Source: an uncultured Massilia sp.
GTDB taxonomy: Bacteria; Pseudomonadota; Gammaproteobacteria; Burkholderiales; Burkholderiaceae
DNA length: 64,000 bases
NCBI GenBank assembly: GCA_946481275.1
Contig: CAMLMV010000016.1
Coordinates: forward strand, 1 to 64,000
Direction of reading: 5' to 3'
Position 1 is the stretch's first letter, and the number at the start of each line of letters is the position of its first letter. Below the pieces are notes generated by a model. That model was not told the origin of the DNA. It was given only the letters and a program-made list of their open reading frames with translations, and searched no databases. The translations under genes were made by a program, and so were the position numbers. Positions 18,400-33,831 of the stretch are shown in pieces.

Positions 18400-19866
18400 A
18401 TGTTCCCCATCGACCGCTCCTCACCCGTCGCCCTGTCCAAGCAGATCGAGGCCGCATTGCGCCAGCAGATCGCGCAACGCGTCCTGCCTGGCGGGACCAG
18501 GCTGCCGTCGATCCGCCAGCTCGCCGCGCAACTCTCGGTCAGCACCAACACCGTGGTGGTGGCTTACGACAGGCTGGTGGCCGCAGGCGTCATCGATACG
18601 CACGGCACGGCGGGCTTCTTCGTCCGCGCACCGGCTGACAGCGGCCGCGCCATTCCCGACGAGGTTGCGCTGGAGGCGGGCCAGGAGCAGGAGCCGGTTT
18701 GGCTGATCCAGCAAGCCAACGACCAGCGGCCGGGCGTGCTGCTGGCCAGCAGCGGCGCCTTGCCGCCCACCTGGCTGCAGGACGCGCTGCCGGCGGCCGC
18801 CGTGCAACGCGGCCTGGCGCGCAGCGCGGCCGGCATGGCCTCGCGCTGTCCGCCGCAAGGGCTGGCCGAACTGCGCGAGCAGATCGCGTTGCTGTTGCGC
18901 GGCATCGGCATCGCTGCGGACGCCAGCCACATCCTCACCACCTTCGGCGGCACCCATGCAATCGACCTGATCTGCCGCACGTTTCTACAGCCCGGCGATA
19001 CGGTGCTGGTCGAGGATCCGGGATACTTCCTGATGTTCGGCAGGCTGCGCCAGGACGGCGTACGCCTGGTGCCCATCAAGCGCCGCCCCGATGGCCTCGA
19101 CCTCGACGAGCTGGAAGCTGCCTGCCGCGCCCACCGTCCGCGCCTGCTGTTCGTGCAAACGGCTTTGCACAATCCCACCGGGTGGAGCAGCAGCGCCACC
19201 AATCTGCACAAGGTGCTGGTCATGGCGCAGCAGTACGGCTTCCTGATCGCCGAAGACGACGTGCACGGCCATTTCCAGCATGGCCACAGCACGCGGCTGG
19301 CATCGCTGTCCGGGCTGGATGGTGTGATCTACTACTCCAGCCTGTGCAAGGCACTGAGCCCGGCCCTGCGCATGGGCTACCTGGCGGCGGCGCCCGCCCT
19401 GCTGAAGCTGTTAATGCGAACCAAGATCCACGCCATCATGACATTACCGGCGTTGAACGAATACGTTTTGCTGGAAGTGCTCAAGGCCGGGAACCTGCGC
19501 AAGCACCTGGAGCGGCTGCAACGCAAGATCATGATGGCACGCAACGCCAGCACCCGGCAACTGAGCGCGGCCGGCGTGCTGTTCGAGCAGCCCGGCGACG
19601 CAGGAATTTTCTTGTGGGGCACCATGCCCGAAGGGCTGGACGTGGACTTGCTGGTGCAGGATGCCTACCGCAACAAGATCGTGATGATGCGCGGCGCCGC
19701 GTTCTCGGCCAACGACACGCCCGACCAGCACATCCGCTTCAACGTCGCCATCAGCCAGCATCCCCGGGTGAGCACCTACCTTGACGAACGCCTGCGCGCG
19801 GTGGCCGGCGCGCGGTCGAGCCTGGCCCGCGCCAGCGCCGCCGCCAGCATCGAGGGCAAGTCCTGA
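18400..19866 (+). CDS. MocR/PdxR-type GntR regulator with aminotransferase domain
   Basis: 488 residues. A winged helix-turn-helix (about 10-75, GTRLPSIRQLAAQLSVSTNT) is joined to a fold-type I aminotransferase domain. The PLP-binding region YYSSLCKALSPALRMGYL carries the expected lysine. MocR proteins use PLP, often with an amino acid, as effector, and bind direct repeats near their target gene. Most are divergent from their target; this one lies nine bases after lysE in the same direction. Regulation of the exporter is inferred from position only. Confidence 0.9.
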   Translation: MFPIDRSSPVALSKQIEAALRQQIAQRVLPGGTRLPSIRQLAAQLSVSTNTVVVAYDRLVAAGVIDTHGTAGFFVRAPADSGRAIPDEVALEAGQEQEPVWLIQQANDQRPGVLLASSGALPPTWLQDALPAAAVQRGLARSAAGMASRCPPQGLAELREQIALLLRGIGIAADASHILTTFGGTHAIDLICRTFLQPGDTVLVEDPGYFLMFGRLRQDGVRLVPIKRRPDGLDLDELEAACRAHRPRLLFVQTALHNPTGWSSSATNLHKVLVMAQQYGFLIAEDDVHGHFQHGHSTRLASLSGLDGVIYYSSLCKALSPALRMGYLAAAPALLKLLMRTKIHAIMTLPALNEYVLLEVLKAGNLRKHLERLQRKIMMARNASTRQLSAAGVLFEQPGDAGIFLWGTMPEGLDVDLLVQDAYRNKIVMMRGAAFSANDTPDQHIRFNVAISQHPRVSTYLDERLRAVAGARSSLARASAAASIEGKS

Positions 19867-19911: not shown

Positions 19912-21030
19912 TCACGTCCGGGCGACGACGCGGTTGCGCCCACCTTCCTTGGCTTGATACAGCGCCTGGTCGGCCTGCGCGACGAGCTGCTGCGCCACGC
20001 CCTCGATCGCGTGGTCGCGCTCGAAATCGTCGAGGGTCGCCACGCCGATCGACACCGACACCGCCAGCATCTGCCCTTCCGGCATCACGAACGGCTTCTC
20101 CGCCACGCTGGCGCGGATGCGCTGGGCGACCATGCTGGCGCTGCCCAGGTCCGCATCGATCAGCAGCACGACGAATTCCTCGCCGCCGAAGCGGCCCAGC
20201 GCATCCGTCATGCGCAGTTCGGCCTTGATGCGCGCCGCGACTTCGCGCAGCACGTCGTCGCCGGCCAGGTGACCGTACGTGTCGTTGACCTGCTTGAAAT
20301 AATCGATGTCGATGTACATGCACGACAGCCGGTAGGCCTGGCGCCGCGCGCGCGAAATCTCTTCGACGAGGCGGCGATCCATGTAGCGGCGGTTGTAGAC
20401 GCCCGTCAGCGCATCGGTGAGGCCGATGTACTTCAGCATCTCGTTGCTGATCACGTTCTCCAGGCAGATCGCGATGATCGACCCCATGTGCTCCACGAAG
20501 TCCGTCCCCAGCAGCGGCGTGAAGCGGCCCGGGTCGCGGCTGCCCAGGTTCAGGCTGCCGATCAGCCGTTTATTCCGCAGCAGCGGCACCATCGCCACGC
20601 TGGCGAGACCCGCGGGCGGATGGGGAAAGGCGTGGCGTTGCGTGGCCGCGTCGAACCGTATCAGCCGCGGTTTCGGCGTGCGGCCGGCGGTCAGGTCATA
20701 GCCGAGGCCATCGACGTTGTCGTGGAACAGCAGGTTGGGAAACGCCTCGAAATCCACGCCCAGCTTGTGCATGACGGTGTAGATGTCGGCGTCCGTGTCG
20801 ACGAGCGACAGGGTGACGGCGTCGAGGTCGGACACCACGGGCAGCAGGCGGAAGATCGTGCCGACCAGTTCCTGGAACGTGCTCGCGCCGACGATCTCCA
20901 GGTCGAACGCCTGGTGCCGCATCATGATGGCGTGGTTGCCCTCGGCCTGGTCCATCAGGCTGGCCAACTGGCGGCGCAAGGCCTCGTTCTCGGCGATGAG
21001 TTCGCGCACACTGGCGCCGCGCTCGTGCAT
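19912..21030 (-). CDS. Diguanylate cyclase with N-terminal DUF484/GAF-like sensor
   Basis: 372 residues. A short coiled coil at the start (ELIAENEALRRQLASLMDQ) is followed by a DUF484/GAF-like domain to about residue 195. A GGDEF domain comes next, with active-site GGEEF near residue 280. An RMTD I-site sits exactly five residues before it, so product feedback inhibition by c-di-GMP is expected. There is no membrane segment, so the enzyme should be a cytosolic sensor making c-di-GMP from two GTP. It converges with the MocR gene and stands alone otherwise. Confidence 0.93.
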   Translation of the reverse strand: MHERGASVRELIAENEALRRQLASLMDQAEGNHAIMMRHQAFDLEIVGASTFQELVGTIFRLLPVVSDLDAVTLSLVDTDADIYTVMHKLGVDFEAFPNLLFHDNVDGLGYDLTAGRTPKPRLIRFDAATQRHAFPHPPAGLASVAMVPLLRNKRLIGSLNLGSRDPGRFTPLLGTDFVEHMGSIIAICLENVISNEMLKYIGLTDALTGVYNRRYMDRRLVEEISRARRQAYRLSCMYIDIDYFKQVNDTYGHLAGDDVLREVAARIKAELRMTDALGRFGGEEFVVLLIDADLGSASMVAQRIRASVAEKPFVMPEGQMLAVSVSIGVATLDDFERDHAIEGVAQQLVAQADQALYQAKEGGRNRVVART

Positions 21031-21840: not shown

Positions 21841-21859
21841 CATGACTTGTCATGACAGG
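21841..21859. promoter_or_regulatory. Palindromic operator candidate upstream of gntR-type gene
   Basis: TGTCATGACA (21848-21857) is a perfect 10-base palindrome. It overlaps a second inverted repeat, CATGAC-TT-GTCATG (21841-21854). It ends 15 bases before the ATG at 21872, a suitable place for autoregulation by the encoded GntR/HutC protein. Inferred, not demonstrated. Confidence 0.5.
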
Positions 21860-21871
21860 ACATACCAGACC

Positions 21872-22621
21872 ATGAACAACGCCACCTTTCGCGCCATCGA
21901 ACCATCCGCCATCCCGCTGTATTCGCAAGTCCGTGAACGGCTGCGCGAACGCATCGCCGACGGCACCTACGCCCCGCAAACGCGCCTGCCGTCGGAAAGC
22001 GAGATCGGCGCCCTTTTCAAAGTCAGCCGCATCACCGTGCGCCAGGCGCTGGGCGACCTGCAGAAGGAAGGCGTGATCGTCAAGGTGCCCGGCAAAGGCA
22101 CGTACGTCGCGCAGAACCCGCCGAGCCAGGAACTGGCGCGGCTGGAAGGCTTCGGCGAAGCGATGTCGCGCAAGGGCCACCGGATCGTCAACCGCGTCGT
22201 GAAGCACGCGCTGGTCGAGGCGTCGCCGCTGGTTGCGGCGCGGCTGCGCGTGGCGCCGGGCGCGCCCGTGACGGAGATCCACCGCGTGCGCTGGCTCGAC
22301 CGCGAGCCCGTGTCGTTCGAGATCACGTACCTGCCGCCCGCGATCGGCGAGCGCCTGCGCGGCGAAAACCTCGCTGGACGCGACATCTTCCTGATCCTGG
22401 AAACCGACTACGGCATCGCGCTGGGCCACGCCGACATCCGGATCGGCGCGGTCAACGCCGACATCGCGCTGGCGCAGGCCCTGCGCGTGGAACCGGGCGC
22501 CGCCCTGCTGCGCATCGAGCGCCTGACGTGGACGGCGGACGGCGTGCCGCTCGACTTCGAATACCTGTACGTACGCGGCGAAGCCTTCCAGTACGCCCTG
22601 CGCCTGCCGCGCCATCCCTGA
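21872..22621 (+). CDS. GntR family (HutC subfamily) transcriptional regulator
   Basis: 249 residues. The N-terminal winged helix (about 15-80, with RLPSESEIGALFKVSRITVRQ) is followed by a UTRA ligand-binding domain that typifies the HutC subgroup. The ATG at 21872 is preferred; an upstream in-frame ATG at 21842 lies inside the palindrome described above. The flavoprotein gene begins 24 bases after the stop, so the regulator probably heads and controls the following operon, sensing a small ligand related to its substrate. Confidence 0.9.
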   Translation: MNNATFRAIEPSAIPLYSQVRERLRERIADGTYAPQTRLPSESEIGALFKVSRITVRQALGDLQKEGVIVKVPGKGTYVAQNPPSQELARLEGFGEAMSRKGHRIVNRVVKHALVEASPLVAARLRVAPGAPVTEIHRVRWLDREPVSFEITYLPPAIGERLRGENLAGRDIFLILETDYGIALGHADIRIGAVNADIALAQALRVEPGAALLRIERLTWTADGVPLDFEYLYVRGEAFQYALRLPRHP

Positions 22622-22645
22622 CACTTTATTTCACTGGAACCCGAT

Positions 22646-24388
22646 ATGGAAACGCATATTCAAACCGTCGACGTGCTCGTGATCGGCGGCGGAACGGCCG
22701 GCCCGATGGCGGCCGTCAAAGCCAAGGAAGCGAACCCGCAGCTGCGCGTGCTGCTGCTGGAAAAGGCCAACGTCAAGCGCAGCGGCGCCATCTCGATGGG
22801 TATGGATGGCCTGAACAACGCCGTCGTGCCGGGCTTCGCGACACCGGAACAGTACGTCAAGGAGATCACGATCGCCAACGACGGCATCGTCAACCAGGCC
22901 ACCGTGATGGCGTATGCGCAGAACAGCTACGCGATGATCGAGGAACTGGACAGCTGGGGCGTGAAGTTCGAGAAGGACGAGACGGGCGACTACGCGATGC
23001 GCAAGGTCCACCACATGGGCACTTACGTGCTGCCGATGCCCGAGGGCCACGACATCAAGAAGGTGCTGTACCGCCGCCTGAAACGGGCACGCGTCGAGAT
23101 CACCAACCGCCTCGTCGCCACGCGGCTGCTCACGGCGGAAGACGGCTCAGGTGCTAGCAAAATCGCCGGCGCGATGGCCTTCGATTGCCGCACGGGCGAC
23201 TTCCACGTGATCCGCGCGAAGTCCGTCGTGCTGGCGACGGGCGCCGCCGGCCGCCTCGGCCTGCCCGCCTCCGGCTACCTGTTCGGCACCTACGAAAACG
23301 CGACCAACGCGGGCGACGGCTACAGCATGGCCTACCACGCGGGCGCCGAGCTGTCCGGCATCGAATGCTTCCAGATCAACCCGCTGATCAAGGACTACAA
23401 CGGCCCCGCCTGCGCGTACGTGACGGGCCCGTTCGGCGGCCACACGACGAATGCGAAGGGCGAGCGCTTCATCGAATGCGATTACTGGAGCGGCCAGATG
23501 ATGCAGGAGTTCCACGACGAACTCCAGGGCGGCAACGGCCCGGTCTTCCTCAAGATGAACCACCTGGCCGAGGAAACCATCCAGGCCATCGAGACGATCC
23601 TGCACACGAACGAGCGGCCGAGCCGCGGCCGCTTCCACGAAGGGCGCGGCACGGACTACCGCGAGCAGATGGTCGAGATGCACATCTCCGAGATCGGCCT
23701 GTGCAGCGGCCACTCCGCGTCCGGCGTGTGGGTCGACGAGCATGCGCGCACGACGGTGCCCGGACTGCACGCGGCCGGCGACCTCGCCTGCGTACCCCAT
23801 AACTACATGCTGGGCGCCTTCGTCTACGGCCGCCTGGCCGGCGAGAGCGCGGCCGCCTACTGCGCGGCGCACGAGCTGCCCGCCGTCGACGAGGCCCAGG
23901 TCGAGCGCGAGCGCGCCCGCGTGTGGGCGCCGCTGGCGCGCGAGGACGGGCTGCCGCCGAACCAGGTCGAGTACAAGCTGCGCCGCATGGTCAACGACTA
24001 CCTGCAGCCGCCGAAGGTGACGCGCAAGATGGAGATCGGCCTGCAGCGCTTCGAGATGATCCGCGCCGACCTCGATCGCCTGCAGGCGAGGAACCCGCAC
24101 GAGTTGATGCGCGCGATGGAGATCCACGCGATCCGCGACTGCGCCGAAATGGCCGCGCGCGCGTCGCTGTACCGCACGGAGAGCCGCTGGGGCCTGTATC
24201 ACAACCGCGTCGATTACCCGCAGCGCAACGATGCCGACTGGTTCGTGCACGTGCAGCTCAAGAAACAGGATGGCGCGATGACCTGCTTCAAGCGCCCGAT
24301 CGCCCCGTACATCGTTCCGCTCGACGACAACGAGAAGGACGCCTACCGCCGCCTGCGCGTGCACAAGACCGAAGCCCTCGCGGCCTGA
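22646..24388 (+). CDS. AprA/fumarate-reductase-like FAD flavoprotein
   Basis: 580 residues. The FAD-binding motif VIGGGTAGPMAA is at residues 12-23, followed by RSGAISMGMDGLNNAV (an AprA-like loop), a second FAD segment VVLATGAAGRLG, and GLHAAGDLACVPHN near residue 375. A helical C-terminal domain completes the fumarate reductase/APS reductase alpha-subunit architecture. It is directly followed by an AprB-like ferredoxin, so a two-subunit redox enzyme is likely, with electrons passing between FAD and Fe-S clusters. The segment corresponding, by recollection, to the APS-binding arginine region of AprA reads INPLIKDYNGP, so the substrate may not be APS. It is probably cytoplasmic; no signal peptide. 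Confidence 0.85.
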   Translation: METHIQTVDVLVIGGGTAGPMAAVKAKEANPQLRVLLLEKANVKRSGAISMGMDGLNNAVVPGFATPEQYVKEITIANDGIVNQATVMAYAQNSYAMIEELDSWGVKFEKDETGDYAMRKVHHMGTYVLPMPEGHDIKKVLYRRLKRARVEITNRLVATRLLTAEDGSGASKIAGAMAFDCRTGDFHVIRAKSVVLATGAAGRLGLPASGYLFGTYENATNAGDGYSMAYHAGAELSGIECFQINPLIKDYNGPACAYVTGPFGGHTTNAKGERFIECDYWSGQMMQEFHDELQGGNGPVFLKMNHLAEETIQAIETILHTNERPSRGRFHEGRGTDYREQMVEMHISEIGLCSGHSASGVWVDEHARTTVPGLHAAGDLACVPHNYMLGAFVYGRLAGESAAAYCAAHELPAVDEAQVERERARVWAPLAREDGLPPNQVEYKLRRMVNDYLQPPKVTRKMEIGLQRFEMIRADLDRLQARNPHELMRAMEIHAIRDCAEMAARASLYRTESRWGLYHNRVDYPQRNDADWFVHVQLKKQDGAMTCFKRPIAPYIVPLDDNEKDAYRRLRVHKTEALAA

Positions 24389-24401
24389 CCAGGAGAACCT
24401 C

Positions 24402-24635
24402 ATGCCGACCACCATCAACATCACCAGCGTCCCCGTCACCGTCGACGACGACAAATGCATCGCACACAAGGGCTGCACCGTGTGCGTGGACGTGTGCCCC
24501 CTCGACGTGCTGGCCATCGACATGGTCAAGGGCAAGGCCTACATGAAGTTCGACGAATGCTGGTACTGCATGCCGTGCGAGAAGGATTGCCCCACCGGTG
24601 CCGTCCACGTCGATATCCCCTATCTGCTGCGCTGA
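24402..24635 (+). CDS. AprB-like ferredoxin, two [4Fe-4S] clusters
   Basis: A 77-residue protein with two cysteine sets: CIAHKGCTVCVDVCP (C-x5-C-x2-C-x3-C) and CWYCMPCEKDCP (C-x2-C-x2-C-x3-C). It ends AVHVDIPYLLR. The spacing and the ending resemble the cluster domain of dissimilatory APS reductase beta subunits but without their long C-terminal tail. It begins 13 bases after the flavoprotein stop, with an AGGAGA Shine-Dalgarno, and is presumed to be that protein's electron-transfer partner. Confidence 0.9.
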   Translation: MPTTINITSVPVTVDDDKCIAHKGCTVCVDVCPLDVLAIDMVKGKAYMKFDECWYCMPCEKDCPTGAVHVDIPYLLR

Positions 24636-24656
24636 ACCACACTACGGAGAACAATA

Positions 24657-26051
24657 ATGAAATTCCTCGCCCTGTCCCTGCTGCTCGCCTTCGGCTCCGC
24701 CAACGCGGCCGAGACCATCCGCGTCGCCATCGGCACGCAGGACACGACCATCAACTGCGCCACCGGCGGCCTCCTGATCCGCGAGCTGCACCTGCTGGAA
24801 AAATACCTGCCGCACGACGGCAAGTACAAGGACGTCAAGTACGACATCGAGTGGAAGAATTTCACGTCGGGCGCGCCGCTGACGAACGAGATGGTGGCCG
24901 GCAAGCTGGATCTCGGCTCGATGGCCGACTTCCCCGGCTCCTTCAACGGCGCGGCGCATGCCAAGGCGGGCAGGAAGAGCATCTTCATCACCGTCCTGTC
25001 GGGCAGCACGCTCGGTTCCGGCAACGGCATCGTCGTGCCGAAGAACTCGCCCGTGCAATCGCTGGCGGAACTGAGGGGCAAGACGATCTCCGTGCCGTTC
25101 GCGTCCACCGCTCACGGCATGCTGCTGCGCGCCGTGAAGGCGCAAGGCTGGGATCCCGAGAAGGACGTGAACATCACGACGCAGGCGCCGGAAGTCGCCG
25201 GCTCGGCCCTGCAGAGCAACAAGGTCGATGCGCACGCCGACTTCGTGCCGTTCGCGGAACTGTTCCCGCACCGCGGCTTCGCCCGCAAGATCTACGACGG
25301 TTCGCAAGCCCAGGCGCCGACGATGCACGGCAGCCTCGTCGACGCGGCATATGCGAAGAAGTATCCGGAAATCGTCGTCGCCTACCTGCGCGCCGCCATC
25401 GAGGCGGACCGCCTGATCGCGGCCGAGCCGGAAAAATACAGTGAGCTGATCGCGAAAGTCACCGGCATCGAAGCGGAAGTGAACTACCTGTTCCACGGCC
25501 CCGTGGGCCTGCAGACGCGCGACTTCACGTGGAAGCCGGAATACCGCCAGGCGGTGAAAACGTCGATCGAGACCCTGCGCCTCCTGAAGCGCACGGATTC
25601 CGACATCGACGTGAACAGCTTCATCGACGATACCTTTATTCGCACCGCCTTCAGGCAGGCGGGCCTGGACTACGACAAGCAGCTGAAGAACTACGAGAAG
25701 CTGCCGTTGAAAGCCAAGGACGCAGTCACCGGCAAGGCGATCACCGACTTCCGCCACCTCACGCAGATCTGGGTGCAGGGCGAACCGCTCGTGCGGCACT
25801 ACGCGAGCGCCACCACCGCCATCGCCGAACTGCGCAAGCTGGAACAGGCAGGCAAGAAGGTGCGCACCGTGTACGCCCACGACCAGGGCTCGGGCCTGAA
25901 GCTGCTGGCCGGCGACGCGTGGTTCGTCGTCGCGGCCGACGGCAAGGACGTCAGCGCGTACCTGCTGAAGGCGGATGCGCAGACGCAGGCGGCGAAAGTG
26001 AAGGGCAAAGTCGTCGATTTCGATACGCTCAAAGCGGGCAAGCCGATCTGA
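24657..26051 (+). CDS. ABC transporter substrate-binding protein (sulfonate/nitrate type) with C-terminal extension
   Basis: 464 residues with a Sec signal peptide (cleavage near residue 17, after GSANA). Residues 20 to about 340 form a periplasmic binding protein of the SsuA/TauA/NrtA class (EMVAGKLDLGSMADFPG and GKTISVPFASTAHGMLL motifs). The last ~120 residues are extra compared with the usual ~330. They end in a strand/helix pattern, GDAWFVVAADGKDVSAYL then AKVKGKVVDFDTL, that faintly recalls the metal-binding NosL fold. It captures an unknown, probably sulfur-containing, solute for the adjacent permease. Confidence 0.88.
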   Translation: MKFLALSLLLAFGSANAAETIRVAIGTQDTTINCATGGLLIRELHLLEKYLPHDGKYKDVKYDIEWKNFTSGAPLTNEMVAGKLDLGSMADFPGSFNGAAHAKAGRKSIFITVLSGSTLGSGNGIVVPKNSPVQSLAELRGKTISVPFASTAHGMLLRAVKAQGWDPEKDVNITTQAPEVAGSALQSNKVDAHADFVPFAELFPHRGFARKIYDGSQAQAPTMHGSLVDAAYAKKYPEIVVAYLRAAIEADRLIAAEPEKYSELIAKVTGIEAEVNYLFHGPVGLQTRDFTWKPEYRQAVKTSIETLRLLKRTDSDIDVNSFIDDTFIRTAFRQAGLDYDKQLKNYEKLPLKAKDAVTGKAITDFRHLTQIWVQGEPLVRHYASATTAIAELRKLEQAGKKVRTVYAHDQGSGLKLLAGDAWFVVAADGKDVSAYLLKADAQTQAAKVKGKVVDFDTLKAGKPI

Positions 26052-26053
26052 CC

Positions 26054-26875
26054 ATGGACGCCACCGCCACCCGCCCCATCGACCCGGCCCTGCTGCGCCG
26101 CGCGGGCCGCCTGCTGCTGCGCGCGCTGTCGCTCGTCGCCTGCGTGGCGGCCTGGCAGTGGGCTTCCATGCACCACCTCGACCTCGGCCTGGTCACGTTC
26201 CAGAACGTGCCGTCGCCGCAGGACGTGCTGGAAGCCGCCACGACGCTGGTCGAATCGCCGAAGCTGGCGCTGCACCTGAAGGCCAGCGTGTGGCGCGTGT
26301 TCGCCGGCTTCGTGGCGGCGGGCATCGCCGGCATCGGGCTCGGTCTGTTCATCGGCCGTTCGCGGCTGCTGGAAGACGTGCTGCTGCCGCCGCTGGAAAT
26401 GCTGCGCCCGATCCCGGCCGTCGCGTGGATCCCGCTGGCGATCCTGATGTTCCCGTCGTCGGAACTGTCGATGGTGTTCATCACGTTCATCGGCGCGCTG
26501 TTCCCGATCCTGCTGAACACGGTCCACGGCGTGGAAGGCGCCGACCCGCGCCTCGTCGCCTCGTCGCGCAGCCTCGGTGCCGGGCGCTGGACCATCTTCT
26601 CGGAAGTGATCCTGCCGGCGGCCGCGCCGAACATCGTCACGGGCCTGGCGATCGGCATGGGCACGGCGTGGTTCTGCCTCGTGACGGCGGAGATGATCTC
26701 CGGCCAGTTCGGCATCGGTTACTACACGTGGGCCGCGTACACGATCCAGAACTACCCGGACATCGTCGTCGGCATGCTGTTCATCGGCGTCATCGGCATG
26801 GGCAGCAGCGCGCTCGTGAAGAAGATCGGCGACCTCGCCATGCCCTGGTACCACATGCAGAGGAAAAAACGATGA
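26054..26875 (+). CDS. ABC transporter permease (SsuC/TauC-like)
   Basis: A 273-residue inner-membrane protein with about six helices. The EAA-type loop EGADPRLVASSRSLGAGRW near residues 165-183 contacts the ATPase. It belongs to the binding-protein-dependent permease family for sulfonates, taurine, nitrate and bicarbonate. It begins two bases after the binding-protein stop, and its own stop overlaps the ATPase start codon. The helices include PIPAVAWIPLAILMF, characteristic of this class. Confidence 0.93.
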   Translation: MDATATRPIDPALLRRAGRLLLRALSLVACVAAWQWASMHHLDLGLVTFQNVPSPQDVLEAATTLVESPKLALHLKASVWRVFAGFVAAGIAGIGLGLFIGRSRLLEDVLLPPLEMLRPIPAVAWIPLAILMFPSSELSMVFITFIGALFPILLNTVHGVEGADPRLVASSRSLGAGRWTIFSEVILPAAAPNIVTGLAIGMGTAWFCLVTAEMISGQFGIGYYTWAAYTIQNYPDIVVGMLFIGVIGMGSSALVKKIGDLAMPWYHMQRKKR

Positions 26876-27714
26876 ACCAGACCACCAAGTTCGAACGCGC
26901 GCAGCTCGCGCAGGGCGGCGCCATCGACATCGACGGGCTGGGCATCCGCCTCGGCGAGGGAGCGCAGGCATTCGACGCCGTGCAGGACGTGTCGCTGTCC
27001 ATCGCCCCGGGCGAATTCGTCTGCGTGCTCGGTCCTTCCGGCTGCGGCAAGTCCACGTTGCTGGGCGCCCTCGCCGGCCACTGGACGCCGAGCCGCGGCA
27101 GCATCCACGTCGACGGCGCGCCGGTCGCCGGACCGCATCCGGACCGCGGCCTCGTCTTCCAGCAACACACGCTGTTCCCGTGGAAGAAGGTGCTGGACAA
27201 CGTCGCCTTCGGCCTCAAGATGCAGGGCGTGGGCCGGCGCGAACGGCGCGAACGGGCGCGCGAGCTGCTGGGCCTCGTGGGCCTCGCCGGCTTCGAGGAC
27301 CGCTATCCGATCCAGCTGTCGGGCGGCATGCAGCAGCGCGTGGAGATCGCGCGCGTGTTGATCAACCATCCGCGCGTGATGCTGATGGACGAACCGTTCG
27401 GCGCGCTGGACGCGCAGACGCGGTTGAAGATGCAGGAACTGCTGCTGGACGTGTGGGCGCGCGTGAACACGACCATCATCTTCATCACGCACGACATCGA
27501 CGAGGCGCTGTTCCTCGCCGACCGCATCCTCGTGATGAGCCCGCGGCCGGGCCGCATCATCGACGAGATCCGCCTCGACTTCGAACGCCCGCGCCATCCG
27601 GACGTCATGACCTCGAACCACTTCACGCGCTTGAAGCGTCACTGCCTGGACCTGCTGCACCCGCAGGCCAGCATCACGCCGCTCGCGCGCCTGAGCCCCC
27701 TGGGCCCTCTCTGA
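26872..27714 (+). CDS. ABC transporter ATP-binding protein (SsuB/TauB-like)
   Basis: A 280-residue ATPase. Walker A GPSGCGKST is at residues 54-62, a Q-loop FQQHTLFPWK follows, then the signature LSGGMQQR and Walker B LMDEPFGALD, with a switch histidine in FITHDIDEAL. The ATG overlaps the permease stop (ATGA). All catalytic motifs are intact. A C-terminal extension of about 30 residues ends ARLSPLGPL. With the two preceding genes it forms one complete importer. Confidence 0.94.
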   Translation: MNQTTKFERAQLAQGGAIDIDGLGIRLGEGAQAFDAVQDVSLSIAPGEFVCVLGPSGCGKSTLLGALAGHWTPSRGSIHVDGAPVAGPHPDRGLVFQQHTLFPWKKVLDNVAFGLKMQGVGRRERRERARELLGLVGLAGFEDRYPIQLSGGMQQRVEIARVLINHPRVMLMDEPFGALDAQTRLKMQELLLDVWARVNTTIIFITHDIDEALFLADRILVMSPRPGRIIDEIRLDFERPRHPDVMTSNHFTRLKRHCLDLLHPQASITPLARLSPLGPL

Positions 27715-27736
27715 ACCCTGCATGCAAGGATATACC

Positions 27737-28702
27737 GTGACTTCCGATATTTACGACGCCCTCGAACTCGCCGACTTGGCCGAACGCCTGCAGGATGACG
27801 ATGCGACCGTGCGCCGCATCGCCTTGATGGACCTGGCCGACCTGGACGGCGATGCCCACGTGCCGCTGCTGCTGGCCACGCTCGGCGACGATGCCGCCGT
27901 CGTGCGCACGGAAGCGGCGCGGGCGCTGGAAGCCTTCGAGTCGCCGGCAACCGTGCGCGGCCTTGCGCGCCTGCTGTCGGACGAGGATGCCGACGTGCGC
28001 GCCGCGGCGGCCCAGAGCCTCTCCGAACTGAAGCTGCCGGAATCGGCACAGGAACTGCTGCCTTATATCGGAGCGAGCGACGCCTTCGTGCGTGCGGCCG
28101 CGCTGCGCGGCGTGCGCGAGCTGCGCGTGGCGGACAGTTTTGCGCCCGCGCTGGCGGCGCTCGGCGACGCCGACCCGCTCGTGCGGCGCGAAGCCGTGAC
28201 CGTGCTGGGTTACCTGAAACGCCTCGATGGGGTCGACGCGCTGACGCGGCTGGCGATCCAGGATCCGGTGCCGGAGGTGCGGCGCGCCGCGGCAGGGGCG
28301 CTGGGTTTCGCGGAGGAGACGCCCCCGGTACTCGTCGCCCTGCTGGCGGCATTGTCCGACCAGGCCTGGCAGGTGCGCGAGGAAGCCGCGACGACGCTCG
28401 GCAAGCTGCGCCTGCGCGACGCGGCGCCGGCCCTCATCGCCGCGCTGGACGACGCCTACTGGCAGGTGCGCCTGCGCGCCGCCCGCAGCCTGGGCCGCTT
28501 GCGCAACCTGGATGCGCTGCCCGGATTGACCGCCGCGCTCACGCACACGATCAGCAATTTGAGGAAGGAGGCGGCGCTGGCGCTGGGCGAGATCGGCTCG
28601 CCGGCCGCCCTGCCCGCGCTGCGCGCGGCGGAGAGCGACCCGGATCCGGAAGTGCGCAAGTCCGTGCGCCTCGCGCTCCAGCAGATCGGGGCGCAAGCAT
28701 GA
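27737..28702 (+). CDS. HEAT-repeat (PBS-lyase type) protein, unknown function
   Basis: 321 residues made almost entirely of ten ~31-residue HEAT repeats with the pattern P-x-L-x(2)-L-x-D-x(3)-VR-x(2)-A-x(2)-L. Such E-Z-type repeats form an arc that binds proteins or cofactors; none of the catalytic residues of bilin lyases can be assigned. The GTG at 27737 is chosen because AAGGA lies six bases upstream; an ATG at 27722 overlaps that site. It starts 22 bases after the ATPase gene, and its stop overlaps the next ATG. Its presence in a flavoprotein/ferredoxin operon suggests a role in assembling or holding the enzyme. Confidence 0.85.
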   Translation: MTSDIYDALELADLAERLQDDDATVRRIALMDLADLDGDAHVPLLLATLGDDAAVVRTEAARALEAFESPATVRGLARLLSDEDADVRAAAAQSLSELKLPESAQELLPYIGASDAFVRAAALRGVRELRVADSFAPALAALGDADPLVRREAVTVLGYLKRLDGVDALTRLAIQDPVPEVRRAAAGALGFAEETPPVLVALLAALSDQAWQVREEAATTLGKLRLRDAAPALIAALDDAYWQVRLRAARSLGRLRNLDALPGLTAALTHTISNLRKEAALALGEIGSPAALPALRAAESDPDPEVRKSVRLALQQIGAQA

Positions 28703-28986
28703 CGGCGCTGCCGGAGACCATCGAGAACCACGCCGCGCAAGGCGTGCTGGCGCTGCACTGGGCAGACGGCCGCAGCGCACGCGTCACGCACGCGCGGCTG
28801 CGCGCCGTGTGCCCATGCTCCGAGTGCCGCGCGCAGCGGCGGGCCGGGATCGACATCCAGGAACAGGCGGACGTGCGCCTGGCCGCCATCGAACCCGTGG
28901 GTGCCTATGCGCTGAACCTCGCGTTCAGCGATGGGCACCGGCGGGGGATCTATCCGTTCGAGATGCTGGCGACGCTGGACCGGTGA
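28699..28986 (+). CDS. DUF971 (GBBH-like N-terminal domain) protein
   Basis: A 95-residue small domain protein. Cysteines at 38, 40 and 43 (CPCSECR) sit in the position where DUF971 domains carry metal- or cluster-binding cysteines. [19 protein letters not shown] is the conserved C-terminal half. DUF971 occurs alone, at the N terminus of gamma-butyrobetaine hydroxylases and fused to some Mrp-type Fe-S carriers. The ATG overlaps the HEAT gene stop (ATGA), so it is the last gene of the flavoprotein operon. An Fe-S or zinc accessory role is plausible. Confidence 0.88.

Positions 28987-31746: not shown

Positions 31747-33831
<2,085 letters not shown>

What the first reader, a model, noticed from the sequence alone, without database searches (positions are those of the whole stretch)
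21872..28986. Operon coupling an AprAB-like redox enzyme to a sulfonate-type importer, a HEAT-repeat protein and a DUF971 protein
Seven genes with short or overlapping junctions follow a GntR/HutC regulator: flavoprotein, two-cluster ferredoxin, complete SsuABC-like importer, ten-repeat HEAT protein, DUF971. Dissimilatory APS reductase partners (QmoABC, sulfite reductase, ATP sulfurylase) are absent, and by recollection the AprA substrate arginine region is not conserved. A plausible reading is import followed by oxidation or reduction of an organosulfur or other small acid, with HEAT and DUF971 proteins as enzyme-assembly factors. I know of no firmly assigned function for this combination.
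Basis: partly seen in the sequence, partly recalled or inferred. Interest (0 to 1): 0.78.

Follow-up and report, generated by a model that had tools for sequence, protein, structure and literature searches.

The report
AprAB-like sulfur-scavenging enzyme operon
A widespread bacterial operon couples a small-molecule importer to a relative of sulfate-metabolism enzymes that kept its electron wiring but has a rewritten active site, which suggests an uncharacterised way of obtaining sulfur from organic compounds.

Summary
The operon is real and exactly placed: a GntR/HutC regulator plus seven tightly packed genes. The flavoprotein–ferredoxin–HEAT core recurs in the 114 related loci examined, in Pseudomonadota, cyanobacteria and, with flavoprotein and HEAT fused, an actinobacterium. 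The flavoprotein forms its own clade beside APS/PAPS reductases. It is neither of those nor a fumarate reductase: positions of AprA's active-site Arg265 and Trp234 are Leu and Tyr in 115 of 115 rows. The ferredoxin keeps the AprB-type relay Trp (113 of 113). New here: the binding protein is an SsuA/TauA fold plus a NosL-like domain; the regulator has a palindromic operator (67 of 88 loci; 1 of 840 random windows); three different candidate ferredoxin-reducing modules sit beside the core in different lineages; sulfite-resistance transporters and sulfonate monooxygenases recur nearby. Best reading: a reductive AprAB-type enzyme that releases sulfite from an imported organosulfur compound, with HEAT as partner subunit. 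The sulfur role is moderately supported; substrate and reaction are inferred. Against it: the lost sulfonyl-binding Arg, occurrence in sulfate-rich sulfur oxidisers, and sulfur-neighbour enrichment that rests largely on one genus.

The parts
21846..21859 (.). Palindromic operator CTTGTCATGACAGG (consensus CYTGTYATRACARG), 12 bp before the regulator's ATG
   Evidence: >=13 of 14 matches near the GntR ORF in 67 of 88 loci, 1 of 840 random 290-bp windows; only site with >=12/14 on the listed strand of the 64-kb window
21872..22621 (+). GntR/HutC-type regulator with UTRA ligand domain, probably an autorepressor (inferred)
   Evidence: PF00392, PF07702; none of the 25 NCBIfam rows shown reaches its cut-off
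22646..24388 (+). AprA-like FAD flavoprotein (alpha subunit), family NF006131/PRK08275
   Evidence: NF006131 1093 bits against cut-off 587; best solved relative is PAPS reductase alpha 8a8o, E 1e-65; groups with AprA/PAPSR in the tree
24402..24635 (+). AprB-type 2[4Fe-4S] ferredoxin subunit with the relay Trp (CWYC)
   Evidence: 8 Cys and Trp motif in 113 of 113 locus ferredoxins, and in the window's own; PF12838
24657..26051 (+). Periplasmic binding protein: SsuA/TauA-type fold (residues about 20-350) plus C-terminal NosL-like domain (about 365-464)
26054..26875 (+). ABC permease, SsuC/TauC/NrtB type
   Evidence: PF00528; below NCBIfam equivalog cut-offs
26872..27714 (+). ABC ATPase, TauB/SsuB type
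   Evidence: PF00005; best NCBIfam taurine ATPase 272.6 bits, cut-off 357
27722..28702 (+). HEAT-repeat partner protein
   Evidence: HEAT_2 E 2e-53, five stretches; matches the C-terminal part of the fused family NF010374
28699..28986 (+). DUF971 (GBBH-like N) protein, probable Fe-S assembly helper (inferred)
   Evidence: PF06155 E 1e-23; in three cyanobacterial loci an Mrp/NBP35 protein follows HEAT instead (one checked as Mrp/ApbC type)

Best explanation
A sulfur-scavenging operon. The SsuABC/TauABC-type importer brings in a small anionic organosulfur compound (a sulfonate or related sulfonyl compound). Electrons flow from NAD(P)H through ferredoxin into the AprB-type subunit, along its conserved Trp to FAD in the AprA-like subunit, which reduces the imported compound and releases sulfite by an APS/PAPS-reductase-like flavin chemistry but with a different substrate pocket. 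HEAT is a partner subunit; DUF971 helps load Fe-S clusters; the GntR protein is a one-operon repressor relieved by the substrate or an intermediate. Shown here: gene order, conservation, clade, residue replacement, electron-relay motif, operator, one fusion, neighbourhoods. Inferred: substrate, direction, sulfite as product, the roles of HEAT and DUF971, and the regulator's sign.
For: The flavoprotein groups with AprA/PAPSR (98/94) and apart from SdhA/NadB and the Asf-type clade (midpoint root); best solved relative is a sulfite-releasing PAPS reductase. Relay Trp in 113 of 113 ferredoxins, also in Ilyobacter PAPSR beta and the AprB of L188. His of the GHSAS motif kept in 115 of 115. Three candidate electron-supply modules in different lineages: an Fpr-type ferredoxin reductase in 9 of 20 sampled loci against 0 of 56 control windows (one checked; 6 of the 9 are one genus, 4 genera in all); a 1190-aa glutamate-synthase-beta/DHODB-like oxidoreductase with FdxA in 10 of 94 loci; genes I recognise as RNF directly after DUF971 in L067. 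Sulfur neighbours: any of nine markers 9 of 20 against 4 of 56; YeiH in two cyanobacterial and six unnamed Pseudomonadota loci, a sulfite-resistance gene in Salmonella (PMC12880088, abstract); TauE/SafE annotated in three loci; a ssuD-like gene, permease and ATPase immediately upstream of the flavoprotein in L025 and L026 (the L028 relative is an SsuD equivalog); TauD-like 9 of 94, Sbp-like 8 of 94. SsuD is present in 18 of 21 genomes with the flavoprotein, 50 of 377 without. SBP fold SsuA/TauA.
Against: The AprA R265 position is Leu in 115 of 115 and the R317-like position is Arg in 1 of 115, so a sulfonyl group cannot be bound as in AprA. The operon occurs in sulfur oxidisers that live in sulfate (A. 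caldus plasmid, a Thiobacillus MAG), where sulfur scavenging makes little sense. The sulfur markers were chosen after seeing loci; 6 of the 9 sulfur-positive sampled loci are YeiH, 5 of these in one genus; oxygenases alone were 2 of 20 against 2 of 56, and TauE 0 of 20 against 1 of 56: no enrichment. SsuD co-occurrence may be due to taxonomy. The SBP fold is nearly tied with nitrate and bicarbonate binders. None of the six window flanking genes scanned is a sulfur-acquisition gene. The flavoprotein model was too poor to inspect the pocket. Ferredoxin reductases and RNF can run both ways, so direction is not settled.
Confidence: 0.36

Rival explanations
1. Asf-like accessory system: the flavoprotein-ferredoxin pair is an electron-transfer chain that feeds an oxygenase (SsuD or another) for desulfonation of aromatic or unusual sulfonates, and is not itself the catalyst on the sulfur compound.
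For: asfRABC of Pseudomonas putida S-313 (binding protein, reductase/ferredoxin pair, added to ssu) is described so in PMC4267179 (passages); SsuD co-occurs in 18 of 21 genomes and is close by in 6 of 94 loci.
Against: The flavoprotein lies in another clade than the CH34 protein that I tentatively place as AsfA; an oxygenase marker is near in only 19 of 94 and 2 of 20 loci; the invariant pocket with the catalytic-site His suggests a substrate of its own; GntR in 90 of 114 loci, not the LysR type of asfR.
Confidence: 0.2
2. Import and reduction (or oxidation) of a non-sulfur small acid, a nitrogen compound or a cofactor precursor; the sulfur neighbours reflect general scavenging islands.
For: SBP fold nearly as close to NrtA and CmpA; both sulfonyl-binding Arg positions changed; operon in sulfate-rich sulfur oxidisers; GNAT and amidase neighbours in Nostoc and Methylocystis; thiC a few genes downstream in the window.
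Against: Sulfite-handling transporters recur in different phyla; sequence-best SBP relatives are SsuA and TauA; the neighbouring enzyme clade handles sulfite; an amidase marker is not enriched, 1 of 20 against 4 of 56.
Confidence: 0.25
3. Oxidative direction: the enzyme oxidises sulfite or a sulfinate made elsewhere, passing electrons to ferredoxin.
For: AprAB runs in this direction in sulfur oxidisers (established knowledge); sulfur oxidisers carry the operon; the linked ferredoxin reductases are reversible.
Against: No AMP/APS pocket; two of five sulfur-oxidiser records searched already hold a true AprA; the linked modules suggest reduced ferredoxin is made rather than spent, though this is not proven.
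Confidence: 0.1
4. Ordinary dissimilatory APS reductase, PAPS reductase or fumarate reductase that is only oddly placed, as the database names imply.
For: Database name 'fumarate reductase/succinate dehydrogenase flavoprotein subunit'; general fold and FAD motifs.
Against: Far under the curated cut-offs of aprA (189 of 641.75 bits), NF005331 (303 of 557) and SdhA/FrdA models; APS-binding residues replaced; own clade.
Confidence: 0.03

Closest known systems
PAPS reductase of Methanothermococcus thermolithotrophicus (8a8o; PMC10322725, passages read) and its Ilyobacter relative (L189)
   Same: Flavoprotein alpha plus two-cluster ferredoxin beta with relay Trp; best PDB match of the alpha chain
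   Different: Active-site Arg and Trp-Tyr replaced; L189 sits with cysC/cysD, the window family with an ABC importer, HEAT and DUF971
Dissimilatory APS reductase AprAB
   Same: Neighbouring clade, electron relay, catalytic-site His
   Different: R265, W234 and Y95 positions changed in 115 of 115 rows; co-resident with true AprA in G417 and G418, 2 of 5 records searched
Asf arylsulfonate desulfonation system (asfRABC; PMC4267179 and PMC2864759, passages read)
   Same: Reductase next to a ferredoxin, with an ABC importer; sulfur scavenging beside ssu
   Different: The CH34 protein tentatively placed as AsfA is in another clade, with a 111-aa ferredoxin and no HEAT or DUF971 gene evident by eye among the ORFs around it; GntR instead of LysR
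NCBIfam NF006131 (PRK08275) and NF010374 (PRK13800, flavoprotein-HEAT fusion)
   Same: The window protein is above the NF006131 cut-off; the Tsukamurella protein above that of NF010374
   Different: Both are named after fumarate reductase/succinate dehydrogenase, which the residues do not support

Membership tests
Dissimilatory APS reductase (AprAB) | aprA curated score (TIGR02061, 641.75 bits) | tested here: not met
   189.4 bits
Dissimilatory APS reductase (AprAB) | APS-binding residues R265, W234, Y95 (A. fulgidus numbering, recalled) | tested here: not met
   Leu, Tyr and Glu in 115 of 115 rows, against R, W, Y in AprA L184
Dissimilatory APS reductase (AprAB) | Beta subunit with two [4Fe-4S] motifs and relay Trp | tested here: met
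   113 of 113
Dissimilatory APS reductase (AprAB) | ATP sulfurylase and QmoABC in the same genome | not tested
   Not searched for; the operon itself has none
PAPS reductase of the MtPAPSR type | Arg at the AprA R265 position, as in Ilyobacter PAPSR | tested here: not met
   Leu in 115 of 115; Arg in Ilyobacter PAPSR
Fumarate reductase/succinate dehydrogenase | Curated score of sdhA/frdA models | tested here: not met
   TIGR01812 165.6 of 567.3 bits; TIGR01176 121.3 of 932.7
Asf system | AsfA clade of the flavoprotein | tested here: inconclusive
Asf system | Needed for growth on arylsulfonates | not testable with these tools
   Needs a mutant
SsuABC/TauABC importer | SsuA/TauA fold of the binding protein | tested here: met
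SsuABC/TauABC importer | SsuA_fam curated score (163.5 bits) | tested here: not met
   118.9 bits
NF006131/PRK08275 | Curated score 587 bits | tested here: met
   1093.1 bits

The most novel reading that the evidence does not exclude
A third enzyme class of the APS/PAPS-reductase lineage: a ferredoxin-driven, oxygen-independent flavoenzyme that reductively cleaves C-S (or S-N) bonds of imported sulfonyl compounds to sulfite in ordinary aerobic bacteria, with HEAT as a subunit of the catalytic complex.
Probability: 0.2. Interest if true: 0.86.

Novelty: new variant of a known kind. Interest (0 to 1): 0.62.

Why it matters
The family is found in about one in twenty Pseudomonadota species sampled (21 of 398), also in cyanobacteria and an actinobacterium, and the databases file it as fumarate reductase. 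If the reading is right, bacteria have a reductive route to sulfur from sulfonate-like compounds that needs no oxygenase. From general knowledge (recalled), unactivated alkyl and aryl sulfonates are opened in aerobes by oxygenases, while activated ones are cleaved by enzymes such as sulfoacetaldehyde acetyltransferase; the Asf reductase-ferredoxin pair has been described as electron transfer for oxygenation (PMC4267179). It would also give a function to a HEAT and a DUF971 family, and the operator, unique or nearly so in the genomes searched, makes induction screens simple.

Tried and rejected
Ordinary APS, PAPS or fumarate reductase: rejected on scores, residues and tree. Identity with AsfA: looked for in the C. 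metallidurans CH34 megaplasmid, whose paper names AsfA/AsfB as Rmet_4334/5 and an asfRAB locus. The record carries one annotated feature only, so I placed the genes by counting from sqhC (Rmet_4148), which has two copies there (722.8 and 998.8 kb). With the first copy, gene 4334 falls near 928 kb, where L091 holds a flavoprotein-ferredoxin pair; with the second it would not. No LysR gene is evident beside L091, which speaks against the placement. A first guess at 793 kb was a TcuA/TcuB-like pair, not Asf. No name AsfA appears among the 120 rows listed of 6497 and of 5038 matches. Literature for PP_02xx locus tags, which were recalled, gave nothing useful. A Rhodococcus desulfurisation proteome did not mention this flavoprotein in the passages seen.

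The first tree contained three wrong reading frames (AprA L185 and L188, SdhA); it was discarded and redone, which still carries long-branch warnings and a midpoint root. The AlphaFold model of the flavoprotein was poor (mean pLDDT 67.5, residues 241-357 under 50), so no argument rests on it. Operator pattern in ten genomes: one exact palindromic site in six (five at this operon), none in four, whose operon sites have one mismatch; the G347 site lies by another GntR gene. A shorter ATGAC-GTCAT motif fitted only 7 of 88 loci before the longer palindrome was seen, so the pattern was fitted to the loci. HEAT matches to phycobilin lyases were taken as generic repeats. NosL was not among the rows of the whole-model fold search, which mainly covered residues 17-348.

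Dropped rows: 2 of 16 SBP C-terminal pieces (L007 frame-shifted, L065 truncated); 2 of 58 control windows, shorter than 15 kb; 2 of 20 requested control regions did not exist.
Full report
THE OBSERVATION. The eight genes are present and open at the stated coordinates, on one strand, with gaps of 24, 13, 21, 2, -4, 7 and -4 bases. Pfam gives GntR+UTRA, FAD_binding_2+Succ_DH_flav_C, two-cluster ferredoxin, NMT1-type binding protein, BPD permease, ABC ATPase, HEAT repeats and GBBH-like_N/DUF971. A methyl-accepting chemotaxis gene converges from the other strand, so the operon ends with DUF971.

HOW GENERAL IT IS. Annotated plasmids gave 208 records with a match, 54 of them at 60-80% identity. A sample of 398 Pseudomonadota genomes had a close member in 21; of 13 genomes of the nearest genome's genus, itself included, 2 have it, so it is an accessory module. 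I examined 114 loci: 80, 14 plasmid regions and 20 from the phylum sample. Ferredoxin was found in 113, HEAT in 111, ATPase 97, SBP 95, permease 92, GntR 90, DUF971 88. The HEAT misses are L025 and L065, where the contig ends, and L085, where HEAT is fused to the flavoprotein. The importer can lie between ferredoxin and HEAT, after HEAT, upstream, or be absent from the stretch. The DUF971 count rests on single-sequence matching of a small protein and on some cut contigs, so it is a lower bound. Other regulators replace GntR in some loci: Crp/Fnr in rhizobia, LysR-like in cyanobacteria.

THE CORE ENZYME. The flavoprotein scores 1093 bits in NF006131 (cut-off 587) but far under the APS reductase, succinate dehydrogenase and fumarate reductase cut-offs shown. 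Its best solved relative is the alpha subunit of the M. thermolithotrophicus PAPS reductase, E 1e-65, ahead of AprA, E 2e-44. A tree of 30 rows puts the 17 window-family rows in one group (94/95), joined with AprA/PAPSR (98/94) and apart from SdhA/NadB and the Asf-type clade; root at the midpoint, long-branch warnings given. In 115 aligned rows (window plus 114) the position of AprA R265 is always Leu, W234 always Tyr, Y95 always Glu; the R317-like position is Asn 87, Lys 24, Asp 2, Arg 1, Gly 1; the loop with E141 and Q145 is replaced by a VHxxGxYVLPMPEG stretch; the His of the GHSAS motif (AprA H398) is kept in 115. A. fulgidus residue numbers are recalled, except Gln145, which PMC10322725 names. 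New invariant residues include E73, H122, Y127, Y216-E217-N218, C241, Q243, N245-P246-L247, C256, W281, R324, R327 and C353. So fold and flavin chemistry may be shared, while the pocket is not that of APS, PAPS or, by score, of fumarate.

THE ELECTRON PATH. All 113 ferredoxins have eight Cys in two motifs and a Trp between the fifth and sixth (WY 110, WF 3); the same Trp occurs in the Ilyobacter PAPSR ferredoxin and in the AprB of L188. PMC10322725 names Trp42 of the PAPS reductase as proposed electron relay (figure legend). Three candidate electron-supply modules are linked to the core: an Fpr-type ferredoxin-NADP reductase in 9 of 20 sampled loci against 0 of 56 control windows from the same genomes (one checked). 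Second, a 1190-aa oxidoreductase with glutamate-synthase-beta and DHODB-like parts, with FdxA, in 10 of 94 loci, among them Halothiobacillus, Thiobacillus, Hydrogenophilales and A. caldus. Third, genes I recognise as rnfA, C, D and E directly after DUF971 in L067. This favours the reductive direction, but these modules can run both ways.

PARTNERS. In Tsukamurella the flavoprotein and HEAT are one 893-aa protein, above the NF010374 cut-off, and the window HEAT protein matches the C-terminal part of that model. This is why I read HEAT as a subunit. In three cyanobacterial loci an Mrp/NBP35 protein follows HEAT; the one scanned is of the Mrp/ApbC Fe-S carrier type, so DUF971 is read as Fe-S assembly help. 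Both roles are inference.

THE REGULATOR. A 14-bp palindrome CYTGTYATRACARG lies by the start of the regulator gene in 67 of 88 loci at 13-14 matches; 1 of 840 random windows does as well. The pattern was derived from these loci, many of them related. The window copy is CTTGTCATGACAGG at 21846-21859, its only near match in 64 kb. In ten whole genomes the exact pattern occurs once in six and not in four; five of the six sites are at this operon, the sixth beside another GntR gene. The reversed control pattern gave none. This suggests an autorepressor with essentially one target.

WHAT IT IS FOR. Sulfur-linked neighbours recur: a ssuD-like gene, permease and ATPase immediately upstream in L025 and L026, SsuD-like in 6 of 94 loci, TauD-like 9, NtaA/DmoA-like 6, Sbp-like 8, MetQ-like 5 (Sbp and MetQ named from recalled sequence); YeiH in two cyanobacterial and six unnamed Pseudomonadota loci, TauE/SafE annotated in three. 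YeiH is the main sulfite-resistance factor in Salmonella (PMC12880088, abstract). Nine sulfur markers together: 9 of 20 sampled loci, 4 of 56 controls, Fisher p 4e-4. The markers were chosen after seeing loci; six of the nine are YeiH, five of those in one genus; oxygenases alone (2 of 20 against 2 of 56) and TauE (0 of 20 against 1 of 56) are not enriched. SsuD is present in 18 of 21 genomes with the flavoprotein and 50 of 377 without, which taxonomy may explain. Against the sulfur reading stand the lost sulfonyl-binding Arg and the sulfur oxidisers; two of five such records searched also hold a true AprA. A possible answer, untested, is that these organisms use the released sulfite as electron donor.

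COMPARISON WITH THE KNOWN. The nearest described system in role is asfRABC (PMC4267179 and PMC2864759, passages). Membership is unsettled: the CH34 candidate lies in another clade, but its identification rests on counting genes from one of two sqhC copies, no LysR gene is evident beside it, and the S-313 sequence was not at hand. None of the papers listed in searches was seen to describe the flavoprotein-HEAT-DUF971 combination; I saw listings, and abstracts or passages of seven papers; the library holds open-licence papers only.

VERDICT. Real, conserved, probably mis-named and unassigned. I file it as a new variant of the AprAB kind, with moderate support for organosulfur scavenging and weaker support for a reductive, sulfite-releasing reaction.

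Noticed in passing
window 24657-26051, residues 365-464 of the product: A NosL-like domain fused to a TauA/SsuA-type binding protein, an arrangement I do not recall having met; Cys at the NosL position in some relatives (L017), not in the window.
   Followed up: partly
window 31912-33831: thiC (PF01964 with ThiC-associated domain) three kilobases downstream, after a chemotaxis receptor and a MOSC protein; no evident link to the operon.
   Followed up: no
window 18400-19866 and 19912-21030: A MocR-type regulator (GntR plus aminotransferase domain) and a GGDEF protein upstream of the operon.
   Followed up: no
L017 16839-20420, L018 16979-20575 and eight further loci: A 1190-aa oxidoreductase with glutamate-synthase-beta-like and DHODB-like parts, in ten loci, all ten also with FdxA; a candidate fused NAD(P)H-ferredoxin oxidoreductase.
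   Followed up: partly
L200 4300-6851 (G347): The same 14-bp operator next to another GntR gene, ahead of a GMC-type oxidoreductase-like and a TauD-like gene (named by eye): perhaps a paralogous regulator with the same site.
   Followed up: partly
L091/L092 (C. metallidurans CH34 megaplasmid, about 928 kb): A second flavoprotein-ferredoxin pair with an ABC importer, an amidohydrolase-like gene and a fatty-acid-desaturase-like protein; candidate AsfA/AsfB.
   Followed up: partly
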